In this document: in pieces, positions 5 to 12,379 of the stretch | Position numbering within the stretch: the stretch's first letter is position 1 | Layout of the letters: the number at the start of each line of letters is the position of its first letter | From: Actinomycetales bacterium | GTDB lineage: Bacteria; Actinomycetota; Actinomycetes; Actinomycetales; Quadrisphaeraceae | Reading direction: 5' to 3' | Length of the DNA: 32,230 nucleotides | Assembly: GCA_022701985.1 (NCBI GenBank) | Contig: JAKONK010000097.1 | Coordinates: 1-32,230 of the forward strand | Program-made: the position numbers and the translations under genes | The notes under the pieces: generated by a model | Told to the model about the DNA's origin: nothing | Database searches by the model: none | What the model saw: only the letters and a program-made list of their open reading frames with translations

Positions 5-454
5 ATGGAGGAGAAGGACCAGGGCTTCACCCTGATCGAGCTCCTCGTCGTCATGATCATCATCGGCATCCTCGCGGCGATCGCGATCCCGGTGTTCCTG
101 AACCAGCGCCAGAAGGCGGTGGACAGCAGCATCAAGTCCGACCTGCGCACGGTCGCCAACAGCGTCGAGACCTTCAGCGTGGACAGCCAGGCGTACCCAA
201 CCTCTGCCCAGTTCACCGCCAGCACCGGAGCGCCGAGTGGCAATCAGGTCACCGTCGGCACCACCCCCATCGCGGTGAGCAGCGGCAACACCGTCACCTA
301 CATCGTCCAGAGCGCCGCGAACGGAGGGGGGTACTGCCTCGGCGGCTGGAACGCCAAGGCGACCGCCAATGCGACGAGCCTGCAGTACTGGTACGTCAGC
401 ACGAAGGGCGGGCTCCAGTCCACCCCCAGCGGTACTCCTTCGGTCTGCACCTGA
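5..454 (+). CDS. pilA: Type IV major-type prepilin (PilA-like)
   Basis: Class III prepilin signal QG^FTLIELLVVMIIIGILAAIAIPVFLNQR near the N-terminus; Cys near the C-terminus (GGGYC...PSVC). The start is close to the window edge. Confidence 0.9.
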   Translation: MEEKDQGFTLIELLVVMIIIGILAAIAIPVFLNQRQKAVDSSIKSDLRTVANSVETFSVDSQAYPTSAQFTASTGAPSGNQVTVGTTPIAVSSGNTVTYIVQSAANGGGYCLGGWNAKATANATSLQYWYVSTKGGLQSTPSGTPSVCT

Positions 455-539: not shown

Positions 540-1187
540 GTGGAACACGTGGACGGCCAGGACGACCAGGCGGGGGAGGACCAGACCGACGACGGCTTCA
601 CCCTCGTCGAGGTCGTGGTCGCCCTCGGCCTGCTCAGCGTCGTGGCCACCTCGGCGCTGTCGATGTTCGTCGCGTCGATGAAGCACGCCGACGGGCAGCG
701 CGAGCGCCAGGTGGCGGTCGCCGTCGTCAACGACGCGGTGGAGCGAGTCCACTCGGTGCGCTCCACGGTCACCAGCACCACGTCCCAGACCGTCGCCGGT
801 CTCGCGGGCACCGGCCAGGTGGGCGGCCTGACCTCGGGGCGCACCCCGTCCGACGTCGCCACCGCCTGGAACGCGACCAGCTTCCCCGGCAAGGCCGACA
901 CCCGTCCCGCCTGGGACGCGAACACCCCCGCCGGGCCGCTCGCGGTGCCGCTGTCGGTGCCCTCACAGGTCGGTGGCACGACCTACACGACGACCACGCT
1001 CGTCGGCACCTGCACCCTGGCGACCGCCGCGGGCGGGGCCTGCTCCCTCACGGGCTCCGGTCCGGTCGTGCAGCGGGTCGTCGTCGTCGTGACCTGGACC
1101 GGCGCAGGGTGCTCGCCCACGTGCTCGGCCACCAGCTCCTCGCTCGTCGACGGTCACAGCGACCCGACCTGGCGGGTCGCCTCGTGA
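540..1187 (+). CDS. PilV-like minor prepilin, cassette copy 1
   Basis: DDG^FTLVEVVVALGLLSVVATSALSMF prepilin signature. GTG start at 540 chosen over the ORF-track ATG at 369, which overlaps pilA; upstream GGGGGAG as possible RBS. Confidence 0.8.
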   Translation: MEHVDGQDDQAGEDQTDDGFTLVEVVVALGLLSVVATSALSMFVASMKHADGQRERQVAVAVVNDAVERVHSVRSTVTSTTSQTVAGLAGTGQVGGLTSGRTPSDVATAWNATSFPGKADTRPAWDANTPAGPLAVPLSVPSQVGGTTYTTTTLVGTCTLATAAGGACSLTGSGPVVQRVVVVVTWTGAGCSPTCSATSSSLVDGHSDPTWRVAS

Positions 1188-1873
1188 GCCCGTCACGCAC
1201 GACCTCACCCGTCCCCGTGCAGCCGGCCCCGCGGGGCGACGACGGCGCGACCCTGGTCGAGCTGCTCGTGGCGATGAGCATCCTCACCACGGTGCTCGTG
1301 GTCATGCTGTCGGCCGTGGTCGGCCTGGGCCGCATGACCGTGAAGACGCAGAACCTCACCGACGCCACCGGCGACGTCCGCACCGTCTACCTGCGCCTGG
1401 ACCGCGACGTCCGCTACGCCGACGCCATCAGCGTCCCGGGTGAGGTCTCCGGCGACTGGTTCGTGGAGATGACCAGCCCCGAGAGGGCCACCAGCGGGAT
1501 CCGCTGCACCCAGTGGCGCCTCCACCAGGCCGGGTCGTCCCTCCAGGTGCGCACCTGGGTCCGCGGCGCAGCGGTGCCCACCACCTGGACCACGGTCGCC
1601 GGGTCCCTCGCGACCGACCCGGCCCGCGCGCCCTTCACCCGCGCCGCCGCCGGCTCGACGCCCTCGCAGGGCGCGCAGGTCCCGCTCGCGCGCCAGCAGC
1701 TCGGCGTGCACCTGCTCGCCCAGCGCGGCACCGGCGAGCCCGCTGGGAAGGTCGTGGTGGACACCGCCTTCACCGCGCGCAACAGCAGCGCCGGCTCACC
1801 GGGCAACGCCGACACGACGACCGCCGTCACCGACCTCTGCGGCAGCACCGCGACGATCCGGAGCACCTCGTGA
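1184..1873 (+). CDS. PilW-like minor prepilin, cassette copy 1
   Basis: DDG^ATLVELLVAMSILTTVLVVMLSAVVGL; GTGA overlap with the upstream stop; 'VYLRLDRDVRYADAI' shared with copy 2 at 5311. Confidence 0.8.
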   Translation: MSPSRTTSPVPVQPAPRGDDGATLVELLVAMSILTTVLVVMLSAVVGLGRMTVKTQNLTDATGDVRTVYLRLDRDVRYADAISVPGEVSGDWFVEMTSPERATSGIRCTQWRLHQAGSSLQVRTWVRGAAVPTTWTTVAGSLATDPARAPFTRAAAGSTPSQGAQVPLARQQLGVHLLAQRGTGEPAGKVVVDTAFTARNSSAGSPGNADTTTAVTDLCGSTATIRSTS

Positions 1874-3456
1874 GCACTCCGCAGACCACCCGCTCCGGCC
1901 CGCAGGGGGCCGGCACCACCGACGGCGCTGACGACGCCGGGATCGCCCTGCTGAGCGTCATCATGCTGGTCCTGGTCGTCGCGACCCTGAGCCTGCTCGC
2001 CGTCGGTGCGGTGATGGCCCAGGTGAAGCCGCTGAGCTACACCACCAAGACCGCCGGCACCATCGCGGCCGCCGAGTCCGGCAGCCAGGCGGCCCTGGCC
2101 GCGGTGCGCGCCGCCACCCGCGTCGACGGGGTCGACGGCAAGACGTACGGCGACACCACCCGGCTCCCGTGCCAGCTGGCGGGGACCCTCCCCTCCCGCG
2201 GCCCGGTGCTCGCGTACGCGGTGACGGTCGACTACTACACCAGCGACCCGTCCCAGCAGCCCGCGAGCTGGCTCGCCGCCAACCACCTGACGTGCTCCGC
2301 GAGCTCCGGTGTCAGCGCCACCGGGGACGCACCGAAGTACGCGCTCATCACGTCCACCGCCACGCAGGACGGCGTGGTGGGGATCGCCGACACCAGCGGC
2401 AACCGGCTCCTGCGGGCGACCTACGCCCTGCAGACGACGTCGCTGAACATTCCGGGCGGCCTCTTCTGGTCGTACGGCAAGAAGACCTGCCTCCAGGTGC
2501 GGGGGACGGCCGTGGAGGGCGCTGCCCTGGAGTACGCCGCCCCGTCGGCCTGCCAGGCCCGGACGGCGGACCTCATGTGGGTCCACGACACCGACAACAA
2601 GCTCAAGCTGGCCTCGACGCTCAGCGCGTCGTCCCAGCTGTGCGTGACGGCTGTCGGCAGCGCCGCCCAGCTCGAGCAGTGCGCCCCGGCGCGGACCGAC
2701 GACCAGGTGCTCAGCTACACCGGCCAGACCTTCTCCATGAAGGGCGCTCGGTGCCTGTGGTCCGAGCGCAGGGCGACCCCGTCCACCGACGGGATCGACG
2801 TGGCGCACGTCAGTCGGTGCAGCAGCAACGACTACACCGACTGGTGGAGCTGGTCGCCCGAGCCCGCCGTCGGCGCCGGTGACTCCGGCTACGCCTCGGG
2901 GCAGTTCGTCAACTACAAGTACTTCGGGTCGTGCTTCGAGATCACCCGCGAGGACCCGTGGGCGAACGTCGAGGGCGTCGCCCCGTGCAAGCACGCCGGC
3001 GCCAGCACCAACACCTACAACCAGGTCTGGACCCTCACCACCTCCGCCGGCGCCGGCGACTGGCCCACCGCCGACCAGCCGGTCAAGAGCGGCACGCTGT
3101 CCATCAAGGCCAACAACCACAACCAGCGCTGCCTCAGCCGCCTCGAGACCACGCGCTCGGACGACATGGGCACCTGGAGCCCCGACTACCCCGCCCTGGC
3201 GGACTGCAACGGCACCCCCCAGCAGCGCTTCACCGTCATCGGCTACACCGGCGACTACTACACCAGCTACCTCATCAAGGACGACCTCGGCCGCTGCCTG
3301 GGCTCCGGACCGGTCTACCACCCCGCCCAGGGCTTCGACTACCCGACGGTCATCGCCGCCGCCTGCACCGGCGGCCCCGAGCAGCGCTGGAACGCCCCGG
3401 CCAACCTCGTGCCGGGCGACGTCAACCACGTCCTCGAGACGCCGGTGACGCGATGA
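1870..3456 (+). CDS. PilX/GspK-like pilus protein with C-terminal ricin-B/beta-trefoil-like region, copy 1
   Basis: N-terminal hydrophobic segment DAG^IALLSVIMLVLVVATLSLLAV followed by AAAESGSQAAL (PilX_N-like). C-terminal ~300 aa with repeated Cys pairs and QxW/QxF motifs (NQVWTL, QQRFTV, EQRWNAP). GTG start at 1870 overlaps the previous stop. Confidence 0.75.
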   Translation: MSTPQTTRSGPQGAGTTDGADDAGIALLSVIMLVLVVATLSLLAVGAVMAQVKPLSYTTKTAGTIAAAESGSQAALAAVRAATRVDGVDGKTYGDTTRLPCQLAGTLPSRGPVLAYAVTVDYYTSDPSQQPASWLAANHLTCSASSGVSATGDAPKYALITSTATQDGVVGIADTSGNRLLRATYALQTTSLNIPGGLFWSYGKKTCLQVRGTAVEGAALEYAAPSACQARTADLMWVHDTDNKLKLASTLSASSQLCVTAVGSAAQLEQCAPARTDDQVLSYTGQTFSMKGARCLWSERRATPSTDGIDVAHVSRCSSNDYTDWWSWSPEPAVGAGDSGYASGQFVNYKYFGSCFEITREDPWANVEGVAPCKHAGASTNTYNQVWTLTTSAGAGDWPTADQPVKSGTLSIKANNHNQRCLSRLETTRSDDMGTWSPDYPALADCNGTPQQRFTVIGYTGDYYTSYLIKDDLGRCLGSGPVYHPAQGFDYPTVIAAACTGGPEQRWNAPANLVPGDVNHVLETPVTR

Positions 3457-4262
3457 GCGCCGCGCTGGTGGCCCTCGTGGTCCTCGCCGCCGTCGTGGGG
3501 CTCGCCGTCGGTTCCTTCCTCAACGTGGTGGTGCACCGCGTCCCCGCCGGCGCCTCGGTGGTCCGACCGCCCAGCGCCTGCCCCGCCTGCGCCAGCCCCG
3601 TCGCCGCCCGGGACAACGTCCCGGTGCTCTCGTGGGTGCTGCTGCGTGGTCGATGCCGCTCCTGCGCCGCCCCCATCAGCGGCCGCTACCCCCTGGTCGA
3701 GCTGGCCACGGCCGGGCTCTTCGCCGCCGTGACCGCCTGGGCCGCCCACGAGGGCAGGTGGGCCCTGCTGCCCGTGCTGCTCTACCTGGCGGCTGCCGGC
3801 CTCGCGCTCGCGCTCATCGACCTCGACGTGCGCCGCCTGCCCGATGCCATCGTGCTCCCCGCCTACCCCGTCACCGCCGCCCTGCTGGGCCTGGCCGCGG
3901 TGCTGGAGCACGACGGCGCCGCCGCGCTGCGGGCGCTCGCCGGCGGCCTCCTCCTGTACGGCCTCTACTTCGCCCTCGCCGTGGCTCGTCCCGGCGGCAT
4001 GGGCTTCGGAGACGTCAAGCTCGCCGGCGTCCTGGGCGCCGTCCTCGGCTACGCCGGGTGGTCGGCGCTCGCGGTGGGGGCCTTCTCCGCCTTCGTGCTG
4101 GGCGGCCTGGTGGGGGTCGCCCTGGTCGCCTCCGGGGTGCTGCGGCGCCGCGGGCACCTGCCCTTCGGTCCGTTCATGCTCGCCGGTGCCGCGCTCGGGG
4201 TCGTCGCCGGTGACGCCCTCGGGCGCTGGTACCTGGCGCTGAGCGGCTTCCCGGTCACCTGA
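3453..4262 (+). CDS. pilD: Prepilin peptidase / N-methyltransferase (A24 family), copy 1
   Basis: VGSFLNVVVHRVP; CPAC...CRSC tetracysteine motif; catalytic Asp contexts LIDLDVRRLPD and GMGFGDVKLAG. ATG overlaps the upstream stop (ATGA). Confidence 0.92.
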   Translation: MSAALVALVVLAAVVGLAVGSFLNVVVHRVPAGASVVRPPSACPACASPVAARDNVPVLSWVLLRGRCRSCAAPISGRYPLVELATAGLFAAVTAWAAHEGRWALLPVLLYLAAAGLALALIDLDVRRLPDAIVLPAYPVTAALLGLAAVLEHDGAAALRALAGGLLLYGLYFALAVARPGGMGFGDVKLAGVLGAVLGYAGWSALAVGAFSAFVLGGLVGVALVASGVLRRRGHLPFGPFMLAGAALGVVAGDALGRWYLALSGFPVT

Positions 4263-4381: not shown

Positions 4382-5314
4382 GTGCAGCTGACGGACCGCC
4401 ACACCCGCGAAGACGGTGCGACCGACGACGGCTTCACGCTGGTCGAGGTCATCGTCGCGCTGGCCCTCCTCGGAGTGATCGCCACGGCGACCCTCGGCTT
4501 CTTCATCTCCGGGACGCGGACGTCCACCGACCTGCAGCGCCGCCAGGTGGCGGTCGCCCTGGCCAACGCGGCCGTCGAGGACGCGCGCGGTCTGCCCGTC
4601 ACGGTGCAGACGAGCACCACGGGCGGCACCACGACGACGTGGCCGCTGCTCGTCCGCGGACGCACCCAGAGCTCGGTGAGCAGCCAGTGGTCCGCCTCCG
4701 GCTCTCCGGCGAGCACGACCTTCCCAGCGTGGGACCCCTCGAGCCCCGTCGGCGCGCTCCTGGTGGCGCCGACGAAGACCGACCGGGTCGGGACGGCGTC
4801 CTACACGACCACGACCTACATCGGCACGTGCTACCGCCTGCGGGCCACCACCTCCCAGCCGTGCGACCGCGCCGGCGGGGAGCGCGCGAACCAGCCGCCC
4901 GCGGGTTACGAGGAGCTCGTCCGCATCAGCGCCACCACCGCGTGGGGGACGGCGCAGGAGTGCTCCGGCAGCGCCTGCTCCTACACGGCGAGCGTGCTGG
5001 TCGACACGTCCGTGGACCCCGAGTGGAACACCTCGGGCGGACGGGCCGTCGACGACACCGCCACCGTGGCGAGGGGCACCCGCCAGACGCTCGACGTCCT
5101 GAACAACGACACGATGATCCCAGCGAGGACCAGCCCCGTGACCGTGAGGTCCGCGCCGAGCGGCATGAGGGCCACGGCCGACCCTGCGGGGACCATCACG
5201 CTGGAGGTCCCCGCCGACGCGGCCCTGGGGTCGGTCACCGTCACCTACTTCGTGAAGGACGCCTACGGTGCGACGTCCAACACCGCCACCGTGCGCGTCA
5301 CGGTGACCCGGTGA
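4382..5314 (+). CDS. PilV-like minor prepilin with C-terminal Ig/cadherin-like domain, cassette copy 2
   Basis: DDG^FTLVEVIVALALLGVIATATLGFF. C-terminal 'DDTATVARGTRQTLDVLNNDT...ITLEVPADAALGSVTVTYFVKDAYGATSNTATVRVTV' resembles bacterial Ig/cadherin-like VLxNDT domains. GTG 4382 preferred because ATG 4307 (ORF track) would overlap the putative promoter. Confidence 0.78.
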   Translation: MQLTDRHTREDGATDDGFTLVEVIVALALLGVIATATLGFFISGTRTSTDLQRRQVAVALANAAVEDARGLPVTVQTSTTGGTTTTWPLLVRGRTQSSVSSQWSASGSPASTTFPAWDPSSPVGALLVAPTKTDRVGTASYTTTTYIGTCYRLRATTSQPCDRAGGERANQPPAGYEELVRISATTAWGTAQECSGSACSYTASVLVDTSVDPEWNTSGGRAVDDTATVARGTRQTLDVLNNDTMIPARTSPVTVRSAPSGMRATADPAGTITLEVPADAALGSVTVTYFVKDAYGATSNTATVRVTVTR

Positions 5315-5967
5315 GCGGCGCGCGCGGGCTCGTCCGCCGCCGGTGGGCCGCCGACGGCGGTGCCCGTCCGGACGCCGGCGTGACCCTCGTCGAGACGCTG
5401 GTCGCGATGAGCATCTTCTCCGTGGTCATGGCCATCTTCATGTCGGCCGTGCTGTCGATGACGACGAGCACCAGCCGCGTGAACAACACCGCGGACGCCG
5501 GTGACGGAGTCCGGGCGGTCTTCCTGCGCCTGGACCGGCAGGTCCGGTACGCCGACGCCATCAACCAGCCCTCTCCGGCTCCGGGAGGCCGCTGGTACGT
5601 GGAGTTCCGCACCGCCCAGCGCGCGGGTGGCCAGCCGACACTGTGCACCCAGTGGCGGTACGACCCCACGACCGCGTCGCTGCAGGTCCGCACCTGGGAC
5701 GACGGGCAGACCCCCGCGGACTCCTTCTCCACCGTCGCCACGCGAGTACTGCCGGACGCCGGCAGCGGGTCGCCCTTCGCGGTGGCGCTCGCCGGCGCCG
5801 ACCACGTCAACCAGAAGCTCACCGTGTCCGTCACCTCCGGGGCCGGCACGGGTGACTCCGCCGGGAGGGCGTCCATGACCACCTCGTTCGTGGCACGCAA
5901 CAGCTCCATCACCTCGCCGAGCAACACCGCCGGCGCTGCTGTCTGCCCGCAGGCCACCCGGCCGTGA
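5311..5967 (+). CDS. PilW-like minor prepilin, cassette copy 2
   Basis: DAG^VTLVETLVAMSIFSVVMAIFMSAVLSM; 'FLRLDRQVRYADAI' shared with copy 1; GTGA start overlap. Confidence 0.8.
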   Translation: MSGARGLVRRRWAADGGARPDAGVTLVETLVAMSIFSVVMAIFMSAVLSMTTSTSRVNNTADAGDGVRAVFLRLDRQVRYADAINQPSPAPGGRWYVEFRTAQRAGGQPTLCTQWRYDPTTASLQVRTWDDGQTPADSFSTVATRVLPDAGSGSPFAVALAGADHVNQKLTVSVTSGAGTGDSAGRASMTTSFVARNSSITSPSNTAGAAVCPQATRP

Positions 5968-7604
5968 GTGGTCACCAGACCCGGGAGGTCACCGTGCTCC
6001 GCTCTGCCGTGCGCCGGCTCCGAGCCCGGACTGCCGGGAGCCCCCCCACGGGCCCTGAGCAGGACGCCGGCGCGGCGCTGCTCGCCGTGGTCCTGCTCAT
6101 GTTCGTCGTCCTGGCGTTGGCGACCCTCGTCCTCGGTGTGGTCGTGAGCCAGGTCAAGCCCACCCGGGCCACCCAGCAGAGCACACGGCTGATCTTCGCG
6201 GCCGAGACGGGCACGCAGACCGCGCTCGCGCAGATCCGCACCAGCACCGGGGCCGGCGGCGTGGGCTCGCTCCGCGAGCTCCCCTGCCGGGTGGCGGGCG
6301 AGGTGCCGAGTCCCGCGGGGGGGCTGTCCTTCAGCTCGGCGATCACCTACTTCACCCAGGACCCGTCGGGCAAGAGCGACACCTGGCAGACGACCAACGC
6401 CCTGCCCTGCACCGAAGGGGCGGGGGTGCCGCGGCAGCCGGTCTTCGCGCTCGTCAGCACCGTCGGCCAGGACGCGAGCGCCGGCGCGCTCGTCCACTCG
6501 CGCTCCCTGCTGGCCCAGTACGCGTTCCGGGTCAGCAACAAGAACATCCCGGGGGGCGTCATCTTCACGGCTCCGCGCGAGGCCTGCCTGCAGGCGTCGT
6601 CAGCCACCGCGGGGGCGACCGTCATCTACCAGCCGGCCACCAGCTGCAGCAGCAGCAACGACCTCCAGCGCTGGGTGTACGACACCGGCTACCACCTGGT
6701 GCTGGCCAGCACCATCACCGCGACCACGACGGGCGGGACGACGGGCTCGAGCGGGCTCTGCATCACGCAGCCGGCTCTCAGCGCGACGGACCGCACGGTG
6801 TCGCTGCAGGCGTGCACCCTCGACTCACGCTCTGCGATGCAGCTGTGGAGCTACGAGAGCGGAGCGCACTTCCGCGGGCAGAACGCCAGCAACAAGGACT
6901 ACGGCAAGAACTGCCTGTACGCCGGTCAGACGAGCTGGTCCGCGGGAGACACCGTCAAGGCCGGTGGCAGCTCGACCTGCGACGCGGCCAACGAGTCCTG
7001 GGGCTCGTTCAGCCCCGAACCGCAGGTGGGTGCGGGAGCCGCCTCGTTCCAGACGTCGCAGCTCGTCAACTACAAGGAGTTCGGCCGGTGCGCCGACGTC
7101 ACCAACATGACCACGAGCTTCCGCTACATGATCCTCTACCCCTGCAAGCAGGACCCGAGCGGCGGTAGCAAGCTGGCGTGGAACCACCGCTGGTACTACG
7201 GGGCCGAGACCGGGGTCGCAGCTGAGCCCGATGGCGCATCAGGACTGTCGACGCGGGTCCGGGTGCGCTTCCAGAACGACTCGGACCGGACGTCGTGCCT
7301 CACCTCGCCGGCACCGGGATCCGAACCCGCCTACGTCACCTTCCGCAGCTGCGACTCCACGCCCTCCCAGGCGTTCACGCGGTACTACGCGACGGGCTCG
7401 TACACGAGCAGCTACACCTTCGTGGCGAGCGACGGCCGCTGCCTGTCGGTCGGGGAGGAGCAGTCGCCCCGCAACGACGGCGTCTACTGGTCGACCATGG
7501 TGCTCGAGACGTGCGACGGTGGTCCGGCCCAGAAGTGGAACGCTCCGCCGACCGCTCTCGAGCCCAGCGTCAGCCGCCAGCTCGAGACCTCCGTGACGGG
7601 GTGA
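5964..7604 (+). CDS. PilX/GspK-like pilus protein with C-terminal ricin-B/beta-trefoil-like region, copy 2
   Basis: DAG^AALLAVVLLMFVVLALATLVLGV...FAAETGTQTAL. Shared landmarks with copy 1: NIPGG, WVYDT, FSPEPQVGAG, QLVNYKEFGRC, SDGRCL, GGPAQKWNAP; several QxW motifs. Confidence 0.75.
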   Translation: MSGHQTREVTVLRSAVRRLRARTAGSPPTGPEQDAGAALLAVVLLMFVVLALATLVLGVVVSQVKPTRATQQSTRLIFAAETGTQTALAQIRTSTGAGGVGSLRELPCRVAGEVPSPAGGLSFSSAITYFTQDPSGKSDTWQTTNALPCTEGAGVPRQPVFALVSTVGQDASAGALVHSRSLLAQYAFRVSNKNIPGGVIFTAPREACLQASSATAGATVIYQPATSCSSSNDLQRWVYDTGYHLVLASTITATTTGGTTGSSGLCITQPALSATDRTVSLQACTLDSRSAMQLWSYESGAHFRGQNASNKDYGKNCLYAGQTSWSAGDTVKAGGSSTCDAANESWGSFSPEPQVGAGAASFQTSQLVNYKEFGRCADVTNMTTSFRYMILYPCKQDPSGGSKLAWNHRWYYGAETGVAAEPDGASGLSTRVRVRFQNDSDRTSCLTSPAPGSEPAYVTFRSCDSTPSQAFTRYYATGSYTSSYTFVASDGRCLSVGEEQSPRNDGVYWSTMVLETCDGGPAQKWNAPPTALEPSVSRQLETSVTG

Positions 7605-7608
7605 CGAC

Positions 7609-8454
7609 GTGAGCGCGCAGCCGTGGGCGGGCGTGGCGGACACCGGGCCGCTGCTGGTGCTCGCCGCCGTCGTCGGGCTCGCGGTCGGGTCGTTCCTCAA
7701 CGTGGTGGTGCACCGCATGCCCGTCGGCGCGTCCGTGGTGCACCCGCCCAGCGCGTGCCCCGCGTGCGCCAGCCCCGTCACCGCCCGCGACAACGTGCCG
7801 GTGGTGTCGTGGCTGCTGCTGCGCGGGCGCTGCCGCTCGTGCGCGGTCCCCATCAGCGTCCGCCACCCCCTGCTCGAGCTCGCCACGGCCGGGCTCTTCG
7901 CCGCCGTCACCGCCTAAGTCGCCCACGAGGGGCGCTGGGCCCTGCTGCCGGTGCTGCTGTACCTGGCGGCCGCCGGGCTGTCCCTCGCGCTCATCGACCT
8001 CGACGTGCACCGCCTGCCCGACGCCATCGTGCTGCCCGCCTACTCGGTGACCGCCGTCTTCCTGGGTCTGGCGGCCGTGCTGGAGCACGACGGCGCCGCC
8101 GCGCTCAGGGCCCTGCTCGGCGGCCTGCTCCTCTACGGCCTCTACTTCGCCCTCGCGGTCGCCAAGCCGGGCGGCACGGGCTTCGGCGACGTCAAGCTCG
8201 CCGGGGTCCTCGGCGCGGTCCTCGGGTACGCCGGGTGGTCGGCGCTGGCGGTGGGGGCGTTCGCCGCCTTCGTCATCGGCGGGCTGCTCGGGGTGGCCCT
8301 CGTGGCCACCGGGGCGCTGCGTCGGCGCGGCCACCTGCCGTTCGGCCCGTCGTTGCTCGCGGGTGCCGCACTCGGCGTCGCCGCACTCGGCGTCGCCGCG
8401 GGCGGCGACGTCGTCCACTGGTACCTGGCGATGAGCGGCGACACCCTCGCCTGA
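7609..8454 (+). pseudogene. pilD: Prepilin peptidase copy 2 interrupted by in-frame TAA (7915-7917); either a pseudogene or split into 7609-7917 and 7951-8454
   Basis: Upstream part MSAQPWAGVADTGPLL...CPAC...CRSC...LFAAVTA*; downstream part in the same frame MLLYLAAAGLSLALIDLDVHRLPD...GTGFGDVKLAG. Copy 1 has TGG at the stop position (VTAWAAHEGRWALLPVLLYL). Confidence 0.85.
8365..8394 (+). repeat. 15-bp perfect tandem duplication in pilD copy 2
   Basis: GCCGCACTCGGCGTC at 8365-8379 and 8380-8394 (AALGV AALGV); not present in copy 1 (AALGVVAGDALG). Confidence 0.9.
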
Positions 8455-11287: not shown

Positions 11288-12379
11288 ATGACCACCAGTC
11301 CCTTCGGAGGCCCTCCTGCCGTCGGCCCCGAGGCCCCGGCGATGGGCCCCTTCGAGGCCGCCGCACTCGCCCGGGGCCCCCTCGAGTCGGAGGACGCGCC
11401 CTTCGGCGCGCTGCCCGACGAGCCCCCGGCAGCGGGGACCTCCAGCCCGTTCGGCACGGTGCCGGCCCCGCGCCCCGCTGGTGACACCGCGGCGGCCCCT
11501 GCTGCCGAGGTCACCGAGCCCGCTGGTCTGCGCGCGCGGCCCACCCGCCCCGAGCGCCCCGGGCTGGGCCTGCCCTCGCGCGCCGCAGGGGGCGGGACGT
11601 CCCGTCGCGGCCCGCTCCTCGTCCTCGCCCTCGGTGGCGGTGCGCTGGTGCTGTGGGCGCTCGTCGCCGGCACCCTGCTGAGCGGCGGCGGCGACGACGC
11701 GGACGCGAGCGGCGTCGTCGTCGTCCCGGGTGCCACCGCGGTGCCCGGCTCGTCCGCCGTCCCCTCGGTCGGCACCGTCACCGACCCGGTGGCCGGGCCC
11801 GGTGAGGCGGTCGCCGTGCTGGGGCGCGACCCGTTCGCGGCCCTGGTGGCCTCCACCACCTCCGACCCCACCTCCGGGCCCACCGCCGACCCGGCGTCCA
11901 CCGCCCCCGTCGACGGCAGCGGCACCTCCAGCGGTTCGAGCGGCGTGCTGGGCGGCGGCACCTCGAGCGGTGCAGGCGGAACGGCGTCCGGCGGGGGCAC
12001 CACGACCGTCCAGGTGCCCGGCCCGACGGTCACCGTCACCGCGCCGCCGCCGGCGGCGTCGGCCCCCGCGGCGCTGACCACCGCGCAGACCTGCTCGGCG
12101 GTGTCGGGGCCGATGGCGGCCGTGGAGCAGCTGCTGTCCGCCAGCGCCTCCGCGAGCAGCGCCCCCGTCGACACCGGGACGGCGCTGCGCACGCCCGTCG
12201 CCGCGCTGCGCGCCGCGGTCAGCGCGACCTCCGACGCCGCGCTGGCCTCCCGCCTCGACGTCGCCACGAGCAGCGCCGAGTCGCTGCGGTCGCAGCTGCT
12301 CGCCGGTGTGGCGGTCACGTCCGACCAGGTCACCACCCAGTCGTCGCTGGACGAGGCCGTCCGGACCGCCTGCGCGTGA
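11288..12379 (+). CDS. Membrane-anchored low-complexity protein, PilP-like candidate
   Basis: Follows pilO; ATG with AGGAG upstream; single TM segment ([24 protein letters not shown]), then [15 protein letters not shown] reminiscent of the PilP 'RDPF' motif, Ser/Gly/Thr-rich linker, C-terminal helical domain. Confidence 0.6.

What the first reader, a model, noticed from the sequence alone, without database searches (positions are those of the whole stretch)
1870..3456. PilX/GspK-like pilin fused to a large beta-trefoil (ricin-B-like) region: candidate pilus-tip adhesin
The N-terminus is prepilin-like (DAG^IALLSVIMLVLV...AAAESG) but lacks Glu at +5, as in GspK/PilX-type components placed at filament tips. 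The C-terminal ~300 residues carry regularly spaced Cys and QxW/QxF motifs (QVWTL, QQRFTV, EQRWNAP) expected for two beta-trefoil lectin domains. Monoderms lack the PilY1/PilC1 arrangement of Gram-negatives, so a lectin displayed on a Glu5-less pilin would be an alternative way to make a tip adhesin.
Basis: partly seen in the sequence, partly recalled or inferred. Interest (0 to 1): 0.75.

Follow-up and report, generated by a model that had tools for sequence, protein, structure and literature searches.

The report
Lectin-tipped pilin in paired pilus cassettes
A soil-type actinobacterium carries, in its type IV pilus gene cluster, two tandem copies of a tip-type pilin fused to a double sugar-binding (ricin-B-like) module; the copy that was flagged has lost the sugar-binding residues that 39 of 40 compared family members keep, and related species repeatedly swap this whole tip cassette for one without the lectin.

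Summary
Window 1870-3456 (PilX1) encodes a prepilin-like, Glu5-less minor pilin followed by six Cys/QxW repeats, i.e. two R-type beta-trefoils. Alone it matches no Pfam or PDB entry, but its family does: PF00652 in 24/25 second and 19/24 first trefoils, and family profiles built without PilX1 find its two trefoils at E 9e-31 and 8e-22. (1) A second, tandem V-W-X-D cassette lies downstream, with its own trefoil pilin (PilX2, 5964-7604). (2) Only repeat 4 carries a conserved Asp/aromatic/Asn sugar site; it is intact in 39 of 40 homologues, and the one exception is PilX1. PilX2 keeps it. (3) In relatives the same locus holds either this trefoil pilin or a different, solenoid-like one. The PilW gene always switches with it (39/39 and 17/17), and the PilM tree requires at least 7 switches. 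Best reading: PilX/PilW/PilV form an exchangeable tip set, and the trefoil version is a glycan-binding tip. PilX1 is a diverged, still constrained second tip without the canonical site. This is a new variant of a known kind, modular lectin pilins.

The parts
1870..3456 (+). PilX1: K-type minor pilin with two R-type beta-trefoils (the finding)
1870..1941 (+). class III leader of PilX1, cleavage after Gly24; mature +5 is Ser, not Glu
1942..2451 (+). PilX1 hydrophobic helix and pilin-like domain (Cys101, Cys142)
2452..2883 (+). PilX1 trefoil 1 (repeats 1-3)
2890..3405 (+). PilX1 trefoil 2 (repeats 4-6)
2932..3030 (+). degenerate sugar site of repeat 4 in PilX1: Glu357, Ala371, Asn384 in place of Asp/aromatic/Asn; the DP of the KQDP motif is deleted
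3406..3453 (+). conserved C-terminal tail after the trefoils (near-invariant Glu523); possible last pilin strand
540..1187 (+). PilV1-like minor pilin (N_methyl)
1217..1873 (+). PilW1-like minor pilin of the trefoil-linked type
3453..4262 (+). PilD1 prepilin peptidase, intact
4382..5314 (+). PilV2-like minor pilin with C-terminal Ig domain (Big_9)
5311..5967 (+). PilW2-like minor pilin of the trefoil-linked type
5964..7604 (+). PilX2: paralogue of the finding (37% aa identity), PF00652 E 6e-15
7089..7193 (+). intact sugar site of repeat 4 in PilX2 (Asp378, Tyr392, Asn407, His408, Trp410)
7609..8454 (+). PilD2, second prepilin peptidase copy, broken by TAA at 7915-7917
5..454 (+). PilA-like major pilin (true start lies off the contig end)
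8568..11264 (+). PilM, PilN, PilO assembly proteins

Best explanation
PilX1 and PilX2 are K-subunit (GspK/PilX-like) minor pilins of a type IVa pilus. They are made as prepilins, cleaved after Gly by PilD, and probably assembled first, with the co-encoded PilV and PilW, into a tip complex. Lacking Glu5 they can only sit on top, and each carries two R-type beta-trefoils outward. In the family the second trefoil has one canonical sugar site (repeat 4), so the trefoil tip set is most likely a glycan-binding tip adhesin. V-W-X is inherited and exchanged as one set while the machine (PilC, PilD, PilM) stays. The window strain has two such sets in tandem: PilX2 keeps the site, PilX1 has lost it but is still under purifying selection, so it is probably a tip with another ligand or a pure assembly/capping role. 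Shown: architecture, homology, site conservation, linkage of W and X types, switching. Inferred: tip position, order of assembly, glycan binding, role of PilX1.
For: Class III leader and no Glu5 in any of 40 homologues. Trefoils: PF00652 in 9/10 full-length members, 24/25 second and 19/24 first trefoils; PDB profile hits to CBM13 and R-type lectins; profiles built without PilX1 recognise it. Asp/aromatic/Asn in repeat 4 of 39/40, aligned to a repeat of a xylanase CBM13 (1isv). Synteny pilT-pilC-pilA-V-W-X-D-M-N-O in relatives. The W type switches with the X type: trefoil 39/39, solenoid-like 17/17. On the PilM tree the type changes 11 times, at least 7 forced by supported branches; PilC tree 7 changes, at least 4 forced for the trefoil label. 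Same-genus G005 vs G002: C 87%, M 76%, D 71%, but V 28%, W 30%, X 26%. dN/dS between this strain and INWT6: X1 0.27, X2 0.25.
Against: No usable structure: both AlphaFold jobs gave mean pLDDT about 30 because only 3-4 sequences could be used. Tip location rests on analogy with GspK, PilA/PilC of S. sanguinis and ComZ. In INWT6 the PilX1 and PilV1 genes carry frameshifts, so cassette 1 is either dispensable there or misassembled. No glycan ligand is known. ComEC is present, so a DNA-uptake role of the pilus is open.
Confidence: 0.7

Rival explanations
1. PilX1 (with V1 and W1) is a decaying duplicate on its way to loss; only cassette 2 plus PilD1 works.
For: PilX1 alone lacks the conserved sugar site. 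INWT6 PilX1 and PilV1 are frameshifted. Cassette 1 has about twice the dS and dN of cassette 2 between the two strains.
Against: All of V1, W1, X1 and D1 are open in the window strain. dN/dS of X1 (0.27) equals that of X2 (0.25), against 0.76 for the broken PilD2. All 12 trefoil Cys are kept.
Confidence: 0.2
2. The trefoils serve DNA capture or pilus self-association rather than glycan binding, as the solenoid domain of Thermus ComZ does for DNA.
For: ComZ, a K-like tip pilin with a large inserted domain, binds DNA (PMC6561018). ComEC is in the genome. The alternative module at the same locus looks solenoid-like.
Against: The conserved residues of repeat 4 are those of the R-type sugar site. 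No DNA-binding trefoil of this family is known to me.
Confidence: 0.12
3. It is a cell-surface carbohydrate-binding protein with an ordinary N-terminal anchor, not a pilin subunit.
For: PF14341 (PilX_N) matches only one of 10 members and weakly; no N_methyl hit for X1.
Against: Leader, conserved Gly -1, missing lipobox, position between pilW and pilD in most relatives read.
Confidence: 0.05

Closest known systems
Streptococcus sanguinis PilC, with PilA and PilB (T4aP minor pilins)
   Same: Minor pilin of a monoderm T4aP carrying a lectin module, thought to sit in a tip complex; modular pilin (PMC9934059).
   Different: PilC has a ConA-like lectin after an Ig module and keeps Glu5; the Glu5-less subunit there (PilA) has no lectin. 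Here the Glu5-less K subunit itself carries two trefoils, and the Ig domain sits on PilV2.
Thermus thermophilus ComZ
   Same: K/GspK-like pilin with a very large domain inserted before the last pilin strand, argued to be at the tip (PMC6561018).
   Different: Module is a beta-solenoid that binds DNA; here two R-type trefoils. The insertion point here is inferred from a conserved tail only.
GspK / PilX (K subunit of HIJK tip complexes)
   Same: No Glu5, encoded after I/J-like (V/W-like) pilins in one operon.
   Different: No sequence match above cut-off to GspK or PilX_N for PilX1; GspK inserts a helical domain.
CBM13 / R-type lectins (PF00652), e.g. Streptomyces xylanase CBM13 (PDB 1knl, 1isv)
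   Same: Cys and QxW repeats; Asp/aromatic/Asn site in repeat 4.
   Different: Only one of six repeats has a conserved site, with a family-specific Lys-Gln-Asp-Pro insert; fused to a pilin.
PilY1/PilC tip adhesins of diderms
   Same: Proposed role: tip adhesin presented by minor pilins.
   Different: No PilY1 homologue found in the genome (but that control rang nowhere); the module sits on the pilin itself.

Membership tests
type IV pilin (class III signal peptide) | short hydrophilic leader, Gly at -1, then about 21 hydrophobic residues | tested here: met
   leader of 24 residues, Gly24 then IALLSVIMLVLVVATLSLLAV
type IV pilin (class III signal peptide) | processing by prepilin peptidase | not testable with these tools
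   pilD lies directly downstream, no experiment
K-type minor pilin (GspK/PilX) | no Glu at +5 | tested here: met
   0 of 40 homologues have Glu at +5
K-type minor pilin (GspK/PilX) | encoded with I/J-like minor pilins of a T4F locus | tested here: met
K-type minor pilin (GspK/PilX) | match to GspK or PilX_N models above cut-off | tested here: not met
   PilX_N one member at E 0.044, GspK E 0.83 for PilX2 only
R-type (ricin B / CBM13) beta-trefoil, PF00652 | sequence match of the module | tested here: met
   family and PilX2. PilX1 alone not met, met through family profiles
R-type (ricin B / CBM13) beta-trefoil, PF00652 | beta-trefoil fold | tested here: inconclusive
   AlphaFold mean pLDDT 31.5 and 29.5
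R-type lectin with a working sugar site | Asp, aromatic and Asn in at least one repeat | tested here: not met
   PilX1: Glu/Ala/Asn in repeat 4. Met in PilX2 and the other 38 homologues
modular pilin | pilin moiety plus a module not specific to pili | tested here: met
tip adhesin | located at the filament tip and binds a ligand | not testable with these tools
   analogy only

The most novel reading that the evidence does not exclude
In actinobacterial T4aP the tip complex V-W-X is a mobile allelic cassette: species exchange a lectin tip for a solenoid-like tip as one unit on an unchanged machine. The window strain carries two complete lectin-type tip sets on one machine and one major pilin, able to build pili with alternative tips.
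Probability: 0.4. Interest if true: 0.7.

Novelty: new variant of a known kind. Interest (0 to 1): 0.52.

Why it matters
T4aP of actinobacteria have hardly been studied, and the reviewed actinobacterial pili are of the Tad/T4c type (PMC6916266). A Glu5-less tip pilin that itself carries tandem lectin domains with one conserved sugar site gives a concrete, testable tip receptor in monoderms without PilY1. Repeated, linked replacement of pilW and pilX at a fixed locus shows that pilus specificity can change by swapping a tip cassette. The tandem cassettes offer a natural intermediate of such a swap.

Tried and rejected
AlphaFold of PilX1 (3 sequences) and of the PilX2 second trefoil (4 sequences) gave pLDDT about 30 and was not interpreted; no fold search was run on such models. 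Homologues from the genome search were not handed to the predictor because its stated rule does not list them. Viral contigs hold no relative. The genome-contig scan gave only Quadrisphaera sp. INWT6. A PilY1 search of the own genome found nothing, but its control also rang nowhere, so absence is not shown. A PDB profile search for the solenoid-like type gave no hit, so 'solenoid-like' rests on reading the repeats. A first count of the sugar-site residues used a wrong position offset and was redone. A lipoprotein or plain Sec signal was rejected: no Cys before residue 101. Paper searches for trefoil or ricin-type pilins found no prior description in the held library.

Full report
What is there. 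Window 1870-3456 (+) is a 528-residue ORF starting with GTG, overlapping the genes on both sides by 4 bases. It lies in a type IVa pilus operon: major pilin (5-454), PilV-like (540-1187), PilW-like (1217-1873), the finding (PilX1), prepilin peptidase PilD1 (3453-4262), and then a second set: PilV2 (4382-5314, with a Big_9 Ig domain), PilW2 (5311-5967), PilX2 (5964-7604), a broken PilD2 (7609-8454), followed by PilM, PilN and PilO. PilX2 is a paralogue of the finding over its whole length (37% identity). The window is contig C34 of a 3.84 Mb assembly; a near relative is Quadrisphaera sp. INWT6.

The pilin part. The N-terminus is a class III leader (DDAG^IALLSV...) with Gly at -1 and Ser at +5. 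None of 40 homologues has Glu at +5. There is no Cys before residue 101. Pfam and NCBIfam give no model above cut-off for PilX1, so the K-type assignment rests on the missing Glu5, the position after V/W-like pilins, and the large module, not on a GspK or PilX_N match.

The trefoils. PilX1 alone matches nothing in Pfam or the PDB. PilX2 matches PF00652 at 6e-15, and 9 of 10 members of the first full-length alignment match it. Split in two, the second trefoil matches PF00652 in 24 of 25 members and the first in 19 of 24. Profiles of each find CBM13 xylanase modules and R-type lectins in the PDB. Profiles built without PilX1 find its trefoils at E 9e-31 and 8e-22, while none of 200 shuffles is found.

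The sugar site. In R-type lectins a repeat binds sugar through an Asp two residues after its first Cys, an aromatic residue two before the second Cys, and the Asn before Q-x-W (established knowledge; the CBM13 and seed-lectin alignments show the same layout). Counted over 40 homologues, only repeat 4 keeps all three: Asp 39/40, aromatic 39/40, Asn 40/40, with a family-specific Lys-Gln-Asp-Pro stretch. The one exception for Asp and aromatic is PilX1 (Glu357, Ala371), which also lacks the Asp-Pro. So the flagged protein is the member least likely to be a canonical lectin, and PilX2 next to it is a good candidate. After the last trefoil nearly all members keep a short tail ending near an almost invariant Glu. 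This suggests that the trefoils are inserted before the last pilin strand, as the solenoid is in ComZ (PMC6561018); this is inference.

The locus in relatives. In the same family the locus keeps its place (alaS - mltG - aroE - pilT - pilC - pilA - V - W - X - D - M - N - O; aroC, aroK and aroB follow in the window) (gene names outside Pfam-tested ones are read from sequence). PilM is present in all 12 family genomes searched, but the X gene is of the trefoil type in only some; others have a different C-terminal module with solenoid-like repeats. Full-length trefoil homologues were found in 30 of 396 genomes of the order. In a class-wide sample of 394, 13 other genomes have the second trefoil; in a phylum-wide sample of 396, none besides the window genome does. 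The PilW gene just upstream is always of the matching type: trefoil X with W-t in 39 of 39, solenoid-like X with W-s in 17 of 17 (the W models were seeded from the window's family). On a PilM tree of 55 loci the type needs 11 changes, at least 7 forced by supported branches for the trefoil label. The smaller PilC tree needs 7, at least 4 forced. In one genus G005 and G002 share PilC 87%, PilM 76% and PilD 71%, but PilV 28%, PilW 30% and PilX 26%. The tip genes are therefore exchanged as a set while the machine stays; transfer versus loss of ancestral duplicates is not resolved.

The two cassettes. Tandem cassettes occur only in the window strain and INWT6 among the loci read. PilX1 and PilX2 are as far apart (37%) as PilX1 is from other genera, but PilD1 and PilD2 are 84% identical, so the V1-W1-X1 set is old or foreign while pilD was duplicated recently. 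PilD2 has a TAA at 7915-7917 in the window and frameshifts in INWT6, with dN/dS 0.76. PilX1 (0.27) and PilX2 (0.25) are both constrained. In INWT6, however, PilX1 and PilV1 carry frameshifts: recent loss, or assembly errors.

Mechanism. Most likely the V-W-X set is the tip complex: X, lacking Glu5, caps the filament and carries the trefoils outward, as argued for GspK, for the PilABC complex of S. sanguinis (PMC9934059) and for ComZ. The trefoil version is then a glycan-binding tip. Which glycan is unknown. ComEC is present, so DNA uptake by the same pilus is not excluded. PilX1 may bind something else or serve only assembly.

Comparison with what is known. Modular pilins, including ones with lectin modules, are well described (PMC8179133, PMC9934059); the 2021 survey required the IPR012902 motif, and PilX1 has no match to the related Pfam N_methyl model. 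No paper on trefoil pilins turned up in the held library. New are the tandem R-type trefoils on a Glu5-less K subunit, the single conserved sugar site, the linked switching of pilW and pilX, and the paired cassettes. This is a new variant of a known kind.

Noticed in passing
window 7915-7917: PilD2, the second prepilin peptidase copy, is broken by an in-frame TAA where PilD1 has TGG; in INWT6 the same gene has different indels.
   Followed up: yes
L003 9001-10589 and 7666-8315: In Quadrisphaera sp. INWT6 the PilX1 and PilV1 genes carry single-base frameshifts while V2, W2 and X2 are intact.
   Followed up: partly
L036, L041, L010, L011 (G026, G099, G058): Some homologues have a LamG (ConA-like) domain nested inside repeat 2 of the first trefoil, i.e. 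a lectin within a lectin.
   Followed up: partly
window 5045-5302: PilV2 and its relatives in G005 and G003 carry a C-terminal bacterial Ig domain (Big_9); PilV1 lacks it.
   Followed up: partly
window 5-454: The major pilin gene is cut at its 5' end by the contig end and diverges faster from INWT6 than its neighbours (dS 0.34 against about 0.1).
   Followed up: no
window 11288-12379: A gene without Pfam match sits between PilO and aroC; a gene in the same place follows PilO in relatives.
   Followed up: no
L059, L060, L064, L072, L075, L098: A third module type on the same pilin, with regular beta-helix-like repeats, occurs at the syntenic locus, for example in same-genus G001.
   Followed up: partly
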